A DNA stretch of 64,000 bases, from contig CADAKH010000009.1 in assembly GCA_902788505.1 (NCBI GenBank), forward strand, positions 1 through 64,000, read 5' to 3'. Shown one piece after another: positions 13,177 through 18,139 of this stretch. This DNA is from Oscillospiraceae bacterium (lineage in GTDB: Bacteria; Bacillota; Clostridia; Saccharofermentanales; Saccharofermentanaceae). The translations under genes were made by a program, and so were the position numbers. The notes beneath the pieces were generated by a model. It searched no databases. It was not told where the DNA came from and worked only from the letters and a program-made list of their open reading frames with translations. The stretch's first letter is position 1. Every line of letters begins with the position of its first letter.

Positions 13177-13213
13177 TCAGAAAGATTTCCGAGAGTTAAT
13201 GGAGCTAAACAGT

Positions 13214-13777
13214 ATGTCATATTTACCGGAGCTGTTATTTGAGGCAGGAGAGTCCAATCTCTTTTCGCCCGATCAGTTTGCAGGATACGCTGTAACTGCC
13301 GTTATCACGATATTCAATATCTTATTGGTATTCGTGGTTTTCAGACTGTTCGCGTATAAGAAGATCCTTAAGCTTATTCATTCACGCCAGGAAGCGCTTG
13401 ACGCGGAGCTCGATGCCGCTAAAAAGGCCAGGGAAGAAGCACAGGCAATCGTTGATTCTTCCAAAGAGACTATTGATGACGCAAAGCGAAAAGGCTCTGC
13501 GATCATGGAAGAAGCAAAGGCCAATGCCGAGAAGCAGAGCAAGGCTGTTATCGATCAGGCAAACGAAGAGGCTCAGCAGATCATCGAGAGAGCTGAAGAA
13601 GATGCTGCAAGAATGAAGCATAACGCCTTCGAGACAATGAAGGACGATATTGCAGACCTGTCAGTTCAGATTGCAGGCCACATCATAGGCGATGCAATCT
13701 CAAAAGAAGAACTTCAGAAATCTGCTTCCAAGCACACTGAAGAGATCCTCAACCAAGAGGTAGCAAAGAGTGAGTAA
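13214..13777 (+). CDS. atpF: F1Fo ATP synthase subunit b
   Basis: 187 residues. One N-terminal membrane helix (TAVITIFNILLVFVVFRLF) followed by a long, charged, Ala/Glu/Lys-rich coiled coil that forms the peripheral stalk. ATG 13214 is preferred because GGAG lies 9 bp upstream; ATG 13199 would start inside that site region. The normal partner of its C-terminus is the delta subunit, but no separate delta gene follows: the next gene overlaps by 8 bp and carries only the delta C-terminal domain fused to alpha. Confidence 0.92.
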   Translation: MSYLPELLFEAGESNLFSPDQFAGYAVTAVITIFNILLVFVVFRLFAYKKILKLIHSRQEALDAELDAAKKAREEAQAIVDSSKETIDDAKRKGSAIMEEAKANAEKQSKAVIDQANEEAQQIIERAEEDAARMKHNAFETMKDDIADLSVQIAGHIIGDAISKEELQKSASKHTEEILNQEVAKSE

Positions 13778-15734
13778 TAACGCAGCTGACAATATGGAAA
13801 ACAAGCAGCCCAATAAGGGAAGGCTCAAAGGACCTTCTCTCCGTATTGAGACTGCAGGTGATATCCCTGAGGAAAAGCTTGTCAGGGTAGCTGCCAAGTT
13901 TGCCGAAGTAAACGAGATCGAAGAGTACCGTCTCTCAATTGAACAGAGAGATGATCTCATCGGCGGTTTCATTGTTTACTATCAGGGAAGCCGTTACGAC
14001 TATTCAATCAAGGGACAGCTCAGCAGAGTCGGTTCCTTCATCAAGCGTACAAGATCTTTCGATGCTTTGGATGAAGACAGCGAAGCATCCAGAAAGGCTC
14101 TTTCCAAGGAAGAATTCCCTGTTACCAAGATCAAAGAAGATCTTGAGAAGGCTTTAGAGCAGTTCCCGGAATCCCATAATCTCAGTATCGATAATATTGA
14201 GCTTACCGAGCTTACGGATTCACAGCTCGATAAGCGTGTACAGGATGCCTTTCTTTTCCAGGAACATAAAGACGAGATCGGTAAGGTCGCCTCAATTTCA
14301 GACGGTGTAGCATCTGTTACAGGCCTTCGTAACTGTATGCTCAACGAGCTTATCTATTTCGCATCCGGAGCTACCGGTATTGCCATGAACCTTGAAAAGA
14401 CCAAGGTCGGCGTAGTTCTCCTTACAGGTGAAGATACCGTTGTAGAGAGCATGAGCTGTAAGCGTACCATGACCACATGTTCCGTTCCTGTCGGTATGGG
14501 ACTTTTGGGAAGAGTAGTAGATGCCCTGGGCCATCCTATCGACGGCAAGGGTGTCATCAGATATACGGAAGAGCGTCCTGTCGAGTCGCCCGCTCCTTTG
14601 ATCATTGAAAGAGCACCAGTCGATACTCCGCTTTTCACGGGTATCACTGCCATCGATGCCCTTACTCCTATCGGAAGAGGACAGAGAGAGCTCATCATTG
14701 GTGACCGTCAGACAGGTAAGACATCCATCGCTCTTGATGCGATCATCAACCAGAAGAATGAGAATGTCATCTGCGTCTATGTCTCAATAGGCCAGAAGAT
14801 GTCCAATATTGTTTCCACAGCCGGCCTTCTCGAAAAGCACGGCGCTATGGACTATACGGTTATAGTTGCTGCTTCAGCTTCAGATTCAGCAGCAATGCAG
14901 TATATCGCTCCGTTCTCGGCCTGTGCTATCGCCGAGAAGTTCATGTACGATTACCATAAGGATGTGCTCATCGTTTACGATGACTTATCCAAGCATGCTC
15001 AGGCATACAGAGCAATTTCACTGCTCCTTCGAAGACCTCCGGGAAGAGAAGCTTATCCGGGTGATGTTTTCTATCTGCATTCAAGATTATTGGAGAGAGC
15101 TGCCAAACTGTCTGACGAGTTGGGCGGAGGTTCTATTACTGCACTCCCGATCGTAGAGACACAGGGTAACGACATCTCGGCTTATATTCCGACCAATGTA
15201 ATTTCCATTACAGACGGTCAGATCTATCTTTCACCTGAATTGTTCTTCTCGGGCCAGAGACCTGCCGTCAACGTCGGTCTTTCTGTATCCCGTGTAGGCG
15301 GTGCCGCACAGACAAAGGCTGTTAAGAAGGTTGCCGGACCTTTGAGAATCTCTCTGGCCCAGGCACGTGAGATGGCTTCTTTCTCGCAGTTCGGTTCGGA
15401 TCTTGATGAGAATACCCAGCTCCAGATCAAGAGAGGTACGGTCCTTAACGAAGTATTGAAGCAGGAGAGATTTGCTCCGCATACAATGGCTTCCGAAGTC
15501 ATTGTCCTGTATTGTGCAACGACTGATAAGTTTAATTTCCTTGCCACAGAGGATATTACGGAATTCTATATGGATCTTTTGAGCAGTATCAAGATCCACC
15601 ATCCGAATATCTTCGAAGAGATCACAGACGGTAAGGAAATAAACGACGAGATCAAGTCCGAGATCGATTCGGCATATGAGGAGTTCAAGGTGGAATTCCT
15701 TGCCGAACACGAGGAGTACGCTGAGGAAGACTGA
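13770..15734 (+). CDS. atpA: ATP synthase: delta C-terminal domain fused to alpha subunit
   Basis: 654 residues against ~505 for a normal alpha. Residues ~24-95 match the C-terminal domain of the delta subunit (AtpH), with its signature LIGGFIVYYQGSRYDYSIKGQL at 63-84. After a charged linker (~95-160), a complete alpha subunit starts near 165 (QDAFLFQEHKDEIGKVASISDGVA), with P-loop GDRQTGKT (~311-318), the arginine finger region (GLSVSRVGGAAQTKA) and a normal end. The delta N-terminal domain is absent from the operon. The start is GTG 13770, with AGAGG 10 bp upstream, overlapping atpF by 8 bp. No internal ATG with a ribosome site is evident before the alpha part, so unfused alpha is unlikely. 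Confidence 0.92.
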   Translation: MSNNAADNMENKQPNKGRLKGPSLRIETAGDIPEEKLVRVAAKFAEVNEIEEYRLSIEQRDDLIGGFIVYYQGSRYDYSIKGQLSRVGSFIKRTRSFDALDEDSEASRKALSKEEFPVTKIKEDLEKALEQFPESHNLSIDNIELTELTDSQLDKRVQDAFLFQEHKDEIGKVASISDGVASVTGLRNCMLNELIYFASGATGIAMNLEKTKVGVVLLTGEDTVVESMSCKRTMTTCSVPVGMGLLGRVVDALGHPIDGKGVIRYTEERPVESPAPLIIERAPVDTPLFTGITAIDALTPIGRGQRELIIGDRQTGKTSIALDAIINQKNENVICVYVSIGQKMSNIVSTAGLLEKHGAMDYTVIVAASASDSAAMQYIAPFSACAIAEKFMYDYHKDVLIVYDDLSKHAQAYRAISLLLRRPPGREAYPGDVFYLHSRLLERAAKLSDELGGGSITALPIVETQGNDISAYIPTNVISITDGQIYLSPELFFSGQRPAVNVGLSVSRVGGAAQTKAVKKVAGPLRISLAQAREMASFSQFGSDLDENTQLQIKRGTVLNEVLKQERFAPHTMASEVIVLYCATTDKFNFLATEDITEFYMDLLSSIKIHHPNIFEEITDGKEINDEIKSEIDSAYEEFKVEFLAEHEEYAEED

Positions 15735-15738
15735 TCTT

Positions 15739-18139
<2,401 letters not shown>

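What the first reader, a model, noticed from the sequence alone, without database searches (positions are those of the whole stretch)
13770..15734. ATP synthase delta C-terminal domain fused to the N-terminus of alpha; no separate atpH
Seen: the operon runs b, then a 654-residue protein, then gamma. The first ~95 residues of that protein carry the delta C-terminal signature (LIGGFIV..SIKGQL) and the alpha subunit follows; the delta N-terminal domain is missing. Known: delta NTD normally binds alpha N-termini, one delta per F1, and its CTD holds the b dimer; mycobacteria fuse delta to b instead. Inference: direct tethering to alpha makes the adaptor NTD needless, but would place three delta CTDs on one F1, so either only one engages the stalk or the stalk is arranged differently. 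I know of no description of this fusion.
Basis: partly seen in the sequence, partly recalled or inferred. Interest (0 to 1): 0.88.

Follow-up and report, generated by a model that had tools for sequence, protein, structure and literature searches.

The report
Stalk clamp fused onto alpha subunit
In this ATP synthase the part that clamps the side stalk is encoded as the front end of the alpha subunit instead of as a separate single protein, an arrangement that would likely let one motor carry up to three side stalks and make ATP from a weaker proton gradient.

Summary
The fusion is real. ORF 13770-15734 (654 aa) joins a delta C-terminal domain (CTD) to a complete alpha; the delta N-terminal domain (NTD) is absent. 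It is no indel: in 51 of 51 loci checked both domains lie in one open frame. "No separate atpH" fails genome-wide: a second operon has a full-length delta. Yet in 17 of 24 genomes picked for testing, four of them single contigs, the fusion is the only delta and there is one gamma. The same step occurs in eight further families of the class and one outside it, alongside free CTD-only deltas.

Ueno et al. 2025 (PMC12229609) built this fusion in Bacillus PS3: without the NTD, up to three stalks and three a subunits bound and H+/ATP doubled. They also noted natural cases (Acidaminococcus), so the fusion is not undescribed.

New here: its breadth, the long-linker form, free CTD-only deltas, loss of alpha's delta-docking signature, and c subunits lacking the Na+-ligand Gln/Glu in 39 of 41 fused operons against 1 of 24 canonical ones. 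Natural multiple stalks are predicted, not shown, and shared ancestry could explain these associations.

The parts
13770..15734 (+). delta(CTD)-alpha fusion subunit, 654 aa, GTG start, 8-base overlap with the b gene
   Evidence: Shine-Dalgarno-like GAGGT 8 bases before the GTG
13830..14057 (+). delta C-terminal domain, residues about 21-96 (Pfam OSCP core 25-87)
   Evidence: modelled domain with pLDDT 80-90 at residues 21-90; fold matches to delta/OSCP
14058..14273 (+). linker of about 73 residues between CTD and alpha core, predicted helical with low confidence (helices 105-110, 118-131, 133-139, 142-147, 150-162)
   Evidence: no in-frame ATG and no start codon with a 5-base Shine-Dalgarno match in it
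14274..15731 (+). alpha core from residue 169, with nucleotide-binding motif GDRQTGKT
13199..13777 (+). subunit b, 192 aa, the only b gene of the operon
   Evidence: PF00430 70.4 bits
11988..12860 (+). subunit a, 290 aa, the only a gene of the operon
   Evidence: PF00119 96.1 bits
12901..13176 (+). subunit c, 91 aa, Met where Na+-type c subunits carry Gln/Glu; best PDB hits are the c chains 2wie, 22vl and 3v3c (cyanobacterial and chloroplast kind)
15739..16677 (+). subunit gamma (start inferred within ORF 15676-16677)
   Evidence: PF00231 249 bits
16688..18139 (+). subunit beta (start inferred within ORF 16652-18139)
   Evidence: PF00006 249 bits
18150..18656 (+). subunit epsilon, 168 aa
   Evidence: PF02823 69 bits

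Best explanation
The window encodes an F-type ATP synthase in which the stalk-binding C-terminal domain of delta is fused in frame to the front of alpha and the delta N-terminal domain is absent, so each F1 would carry three clamps and likely up to three b2 side stalks, each with its own a subunit. Shown by sequence: the fusion, the missing NTD, a single a and a single b gene, an otherwise complete operon, conservation across the order, and genomes in which this is the only delta and the only F1Fo. Shown by others in an engineered enzyme: deleting the NTD and fusing the CTD to alpha in Bacillus PS3 gives one to three stalks and doubles H+/ATP. Inferred here: the native enzyme behaves the same way, so that protons per ATP rise with the number of a subunits and the enzyme works as a low gear, making ATP at a small proton-motive force or, in reverse, exporting more protons per ATP. 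In this genome it would be the proton-coupled partner of a canonical synthase that is predicted to be Na+-coupled. The long, predicted helical linker of the Saccharofermentans group may fill the central dimple that the NTD occupies in ordinary enzymes; that is untested.
For: Fusion and missing NTD. Conservation: 101 of 142 order genomes have the CTD in a frame of at least 580 aa; 51 of 51 checked loci have CTD and alpha in one open frame. Sole delta: 17 of 24 picked genomes, four of them single contigs, have the fusion as the only OSCP match over the cut-off and one gamma. Engineered counterpart: PDB 9jc1 found by sequence and by fold (ranks 28 and 31); a Butyrivibrio-like fusion aligns to it nearly end to end (10-565 to 8-561). 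Ueno et al. 2025: H+/ATP 5.8 against 3.0, balance pmf 68 against 133 mV, a and b 2.2- and 1.8-fold up. Alpha's canonical N-terminal docking signature is above 12 bits in 24 of 26 canonical alphas and in 0 of 41 CTD-alpha fusions. c-subunit residue.
Against: No protein-level evidence exists for this organism: neither stalk number, nor the size of alpha, nor ion specificity was measured. The engineered enzyme had on average two stalks, few triple-stalk particles and lower activity. One b and one a gene per operon leaves the dose of stalks open. The associations of NTD loss with the alpha signature and with c type are not phylogenetically independent: paired tests had only 1-2 usable pairs on starred branches and the c residue needs only one change on the alpha tree. 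Two fused operons (L135, L136) carry a Gln-type c, against the pairing with H+-type c. Several fused rows keep a weak trace of the docking signature (up to 10.9 bits).
Confidence: 0.58

Rival explanations
1. Single-stalk version: three CTDs are present per F1 but only one binds a b2 stalk, the other two being idle or packed as a cap; the fusion merely replaces the NTD as anchor.
For: One a and one b gene per operon as in canonical enzymes. In the engineered enzyme single- and double-stalk particles were also found. The window group has extra, predicted helical linker sequence (median 75 residues between CTD and alpha core in 24 fusions of the window's clade against 33 in 19 others) that could form an asymmetric cap.
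Against: The CTDs are covalently equal, and the symmetry breaker named by Ueno et al., the NTD, is gone; nothing found in the sequence would limit binding to one.
Confidence: 0.31
2. The fusion is undone in the cell by proteolysis or by an internal translation start, giving a free CTD and an ordinary alpha.
For: Free CTD-only deltas of 71-89 aa next to alpha exist in 5 examined operons. Of 45 fused frames, 27 have an ATG in the linker and 9 have an internal start codon with a 5-base Shine-Dalgarno match.
Against: In the window the linker has no in-frame ATG and no start with such a match. Even then the NTD would still be missing, so the stalk argument would not change.
Confidence: 0.06
3. In the window's genome the fused F1 borrows the full-length delta of the second operon.
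For: That delta exists; in the listing, 39 of 101 fusion genomes also show a canonical-length delta.
Against: 60 of 101 fusion genomes have only one CTD match (counted by eye from the genome table), and 17 picked genomes have no other delta over the cut-off. The fused alphas lack the usual docking signature.
Confidence: 0.03
4. Assembly or sequencing indel that joins two genes.
For: The genome is a 57-contig draft; one relative (L110) does have a frame break within the fused gene.
Against: 51 of 51 checked loci have both domains in one frame, including an isolate genome, Ruminococcaceae bacterium YAD3003 (L151). The break in L110 splits the fusion, it does not make one.
Confidence: 0.01

Closest known systems
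Engineered delta-Delta-N-alpha FoF1 of Bacillus PS3 (PDB 9jc1; Ueno et al. 2025, PMC12229609)
   Same: delta CTD fused directly before alpha, delta NTD absent, single a and b genes; a Butyrivibrio-like natural fusion aligns almost end to end with it.
   Different: Designed protein with a short artificial linker and the docking helix of PS3 alpha kept; its epsilon was also trimmed. The window has a ~73-residue natural linker and no canonical docking signature. Stalk number is measured there, predicted here.
Natural NTD-less delta-alpha fusion noted in Acidaminococcus fermentans (same paper, Discussion)
   Same: Same domain order and missing NTD, as the authors state.
   Different: Noted in a few lines for three sequences and not tested. 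I could not tell whether my fused family f102 outside the class is theirs. The window belongs to another clade with a longer linker, though a joint clade with f102 is not rejected (p 0.325).
Canonical bacterial F1Fo ATP synthase
   Same: Same subunits and operon order.
   Different: Canonical enzymes have one separate two-domain delta; the genome's own second operon is an example (L114).
Mycobacterial b-delta fusion (PDB 7jg5 and others)
   Same: delta CTD made part of another stator subunit; found by the CTD profile.
   Different: There delta is fused to b; here b is a separate 192-aa protein without an OSCP match.
N-ATPase (alternate F1F0)
   Same: No separate delta; its b family matches the CTD region weakly (TIGR03321, 13 bits), and one N-ATPase-like b in a relative has a CTD-like tail (L073).
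   Different: Other gene order, CTD-like tail on b, alpha below the family cut-off (580.1 against 750.5 bits).

Membership tests
F-type ATP synthase | operon with a, c, b, alpha, gamma, beta, epsilon | tested here: met
F-type ATP synthase | separate two-domain delta in the same operon | tested here: not met
   only OSCP profile positions 106-168, inside the alpha ORF
NTD-less delta-alpha fused FoF1 (Ueno et al. type) | delta CTD in frame before alpha | tested here: met
NTD-less delta-alpha fused FoF1 (Ueno et al. type) | delta NTD absent from the fused protein | tested here: met
   no match to OSCP positions 1-105 in the fused protein; extends an alignment upstream only by reading through four stops
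NTD-less delta-alpha fused FoF1 (Ueno et al. type) | more than one peripheral stalk and a subunit per F1 | not testable with these tools
   needs purified native enzyme
NTD-less delta-alpha fused FoF1 (Ueno et al. type) | raised H+/ATP ratio | not testable with these tools
   needs proteoliposome assay
Mycobacterial b-delta type | delta fused to b | tested here: not met
   b (192 aa) has PF00430 and no OSCP match
N-ATPase | alpha over the TIGR03324 cut-off | tested here: not met
   580.1 bits against 750.5
N-ATPase | operon beginning beta-epsilon, then a-c-b-alpha-gamma | tested here: not met
   window order a-c-b-fusion-gamma-beta-epsilon; N-ATPase order from PMC5709465, passages
H+-coupled c-ring | no Gln/Glu at the Na+-ligand position of the first helix | tested here: met
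   Met in the window's c; ion specificity itself not testable here

The most novel reading that the evidence does not exclude
A large lineage of proton-type ATP synthases in anaerobic Firmicutes are native multi-stalk motors: they dropped the delta domain that blocks the three-fold axis, kept the stalk clamp either free or built into every alpha, and so gear up protons per ATP by the number of stalks, often beside an ordinary single-stalk Na+ synthase in the same cell.
Probability: 0.45. Interest if true: 0.93.

Novelty: new variant of a known kind. Interest (0 to 1): 0.76.

Why it matters
Textbook ATP synthases have one side stalk and one proton channel, and the proton cost of ATP is set by the c-ring. 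If native multi-stalk enzymes exist, the proton cost can also be set by the number of stalks, which would change energy budgets for common gut and rumen anaerobes. The fused gene occurs in cultured bacteria (Ruminococcaceae bacterium YAD3003, Butyrivibrio, Christensenella), so the prediction of Ueno et al. can be tested on natural enzymes. Genomes that carry both kinds allow a comparison inside one cell.

Tried and rejected
An assembly indel was rejected by conservation. The idea that the window's genome lacks any delta was rejected. A single origin of all 32 fusions in the tree was rejected (AU p 0.009), but the window clade held together with each of three other fused groups was not (p 0.61, 0.33, 0.33), so the number of origins is unresolved. 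Whether NTD loss and c type change together independently could not be tested: too few independent pairs. Two long frames reported by the genome searches were not fusions: G347 (L091, a TAG directly followed by the alpha ATG) and G621 (L137). So the frame lengths printed by that tool can run past a stop, and my 101 of 142 rests partly on them. L142 (three small CTD-like hits) showed no ATP synthase subunit and was dropped. L109 (delta of 116 aa) and L143 (delta of 227 aa with a diverged N-terminus) were first labelled CTD-only and then set apart; L109 keeps the docking signature (31.6 bits), L143 does not. L107, L109, L139, L141 and the N-ATPases L073 and L074 were left out of the c-residue count on the tree; 12 near-duplicate or broken rows were dropped before the tree. 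The whole-length AlphaFold2 model was poor (pLDDT 62.9, pTM 0.46), so I used the N-terminal piece. A partner hydrogenase was looked for in the own genome: an RnfD-type match was found, no NiFe hydrogenase large subunit (genome 87% complete).

Full report
What is there. The ORF 13770-15734 starts with GTG, overlaps the end of b by 8 bases and encodes 654 residues. Residues 25-87 match Pfam OSCP at profile positions 106-168 of 172 (31.5 bits against a cut-off of 22.3), and residues 153-643 match the atpA equivalog model (714 bits). A PDB search with a profile of 23 such CTDs returned 30 distinct sequences at E up to 0.01, named as delta, OSCP, b-delta or fusion proteins, plus the engineered 9jc1. 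The modelled domain (pLDDT 80-90) matches delta/OSCP folds with probability 1.00, though no match reached E 0.001.

It is not an artefact. In 59 relatives (the own genome included) the N-terminal piece is found in 42. In 142 genomes of the order at least 85% complete, 110 have a CTD match at E up to 0.01 and 101 have it in a frame of at least 580 aa; the exceptions are 4 with canonical-length deltas only and 5 others. Because that tool's frames can run past a stop, I checked 51 loci directly: all 51 have CTD and alpha in one stop-free frame. One of them is the window itself, some named loci are the same genomes as unnamed ones, and three frames run to the end of the locus. One relative has a frame break within the gene (L110).

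The genome has another delta. Contig C1 carries a second operon, a, c, b, full-length delta, alpha, gamma, beta, epsilon. So the statement 'no separate atpH' is wrong for the genome. It does not undo the finding: of 24 genomes that I picked for a check, 17 have the fusion as the only OSCP match over the cut-off and a single gamma (G037, G212, G280 and G542 are single contigs of 99-100% completeness); 4 have only a free CTD-only delta; 3 have two operons. By the genome table, counted by eye, 60 of the 101 fusion genomes have a single CTD match.

How wide it is. In 392 genomes of the class (matches listed up to a cap) I fetched 15 with frames of at least 580 aa outside the order: 14 were fusions and 1 (G347) was not. 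With G229 from the phylum search this makes eight further families of the class. In 398 genomes of the phylum (capped list) G542 and G583, of one family outside the class, were confirmed and G621 was not a fusion. In the 80 loci with an alpha long enough for the tree set I labelled 41 CTD-alpha fusions, 2 fusions that keep more of delta (L098, with a weak 14-bit NTD match, and L100, whose OSCP match starts at position 18), 25 canonical, 7 first labelled CTD-only of which 5 stand (L069, L103-L106), and 2 with a doubled CTD (L108, with a cut alpha, is a third). Names come from protein and contig searches: Saccharofermentans sp., the isolate Ruminococcaceae bacterium YAD3003, Butyrivibrio (hungatei, proteoclasticus and others) and Christensenella (hongkongensis, tenuis).

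History. On an alpha tree of 68 rows the fusion label needs 6 changes, at least 3 of them forced by well-supported branches. One clade of all 32 fusions is rejected (p 0.009), but the window clade joined with any one of three other fused groups is not. I therefore claim more than one gain or loss, not a number. Five examined operons have a free CTD-only delta beside alpha, so NTD loss without fusion exists; which step came first is open.

Why the missing NTD matters. Ueno et al. (PMC12229609; abstract, passages and the whole Discussion seen) argue that the delta NTD sits on the three-fold axis of F1 and limits the enzyme to one stalk. They deleted it in Bacillus PS3, fused the CTD to alpha and saw up to three b2 stalks and three a subunits, an H+/ATP ratio of 5.8 against 3.0, and a balance pmf of 68 against 133 mV. 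Their protein is PDB 9jc1, which my searches found without prior aim. They also report that Acidaminococcus fermentans and two other UniProt entries have such a fusion in nature. The window is thus a natural instance of a design whose effect has been measured in another species. That the native enzyme has several stalks is inference.

Two further regularities. First, canonical alphas begin with a conserved segment of the type PEEISxIIKxQIxxY. Scored with a matrix built from canonical rows (near copies left out), 24 of 26 canonical, 3 of 3 doubled-CTD and 1 of 1 shortened-delta rows exceed 12 bits; 0 of 41 CTD-alpha fusions, 0 of 5 CTD-only, 0 of 2 larger fusions and 0 of 1 diverged-delta rows do. 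The two canonical misses are one genus; some fused rows keep a trace (best 10.9 bits). That this segment binds delta is known for alpha N-termini in general (PMC6131620, passages; PMC12229609). Second, the first-helix position that holds Gln or Glu in Na+-type c subunits (PMC3692424, passages) is Met or Ile in 39 of 41 CTD-alpha operons, 2 of 2 larger fusions and 4 of 5 CTD-only operons, but Gln or Glu in 23 of 24 canonical operons; 21 of the 24 also have Ser or Thr next to the carboxylate. In the five genomes where I read both operons the canonical c has Gln/Glu and the fused one Met/Ile (G000, G172, G497, G269, G328; the fused ones of G269 and G497 are the larger fusions). The own genome's C1 c matches Na+-type rings best, the window's c matches 2wie and chloroplast rings best. 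These regularities may reflect one old split of the whole operon: the c residue needs a single change on the alpha tree, and 59 of 63 rows agree. The exceptions are L069, L127, L135 and L136.

Reading. The likely mechanism is a proton-coupled synthase with two or three stalks and a high H+/ATP ratio, useful where the proton gradient is small. In the reverse direction it would export more protons per ATP. The window group has an additional ~64-89 residues (14 and 23 in two members) between CTD and alpha core, against 24-46 elsewhere, which may cover the F1 centre where the NTD is missing; the model gives helices there with low confidence.

Literature. Ten searches of the held library gave one paper on the fusion, Ueno et al.; [quoted passage not shown] Subscription journals and preprints are mostly not held, so earlier reports may exist.

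Noticed in passing
L114 (own genome, contig C1 13500-22500): Second F1Fo operon with a two-carboxylate Na+-type c subunit and an epsilon of only 86 aa, too short for the usual C-terminal helices.
   Followed up: partly
L090 4771-5556, L107 1533-2315, L108 1413-2177: delta subunits of 254-261 aa with one NTD and two consecutive CTDs, which might bind two stalks or both b chains.
   Followed up: no
L103, L104, L105, L106, L069: Free-standing CTD-only delta genes of 71-89 aa directly before alpha; in G040, G520, G370 and G189 it is the only OSCP match over the cut-off.
   Followed up: partly
L098 4274-6346, L100 4157-6166: Larger delta-alpha fusions (690 and 669 aa) that seem to keep an NTD-like segment.
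   Followed up: partly
L099 6097-8457: gamma and beta in one ORF of 786 aa next to a CTD-alpha fusion; assembly error not excluded.
   Followed up: no
L091 7533-8573; L139 2796-3386; L177: c subunits with four, two and three hairpins in one ORF (346, 196 and 263 aa), in L091 beside ordinary c genes.
   Followed up: no
L091 5869-5868: delta and alpha in one frame separated by a single TAG, a state one base change away from a full delta-alpha fusion.
   Followed up: no
L109 5671-6021: delta of 116 aa with a shortened NTD region but an alpha that keeps the docking signature.
   Followed up: no
L073, L074 (G045): Two N-ATPase-like operons in a genome that also has the fusion; the b of L073 has a CTD-like tail.
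   Followed up: no
G000:C26 (L172): RnfD-type match in the own genome, but no NiFe hydrogenase large subunit found.
   Followed up: no
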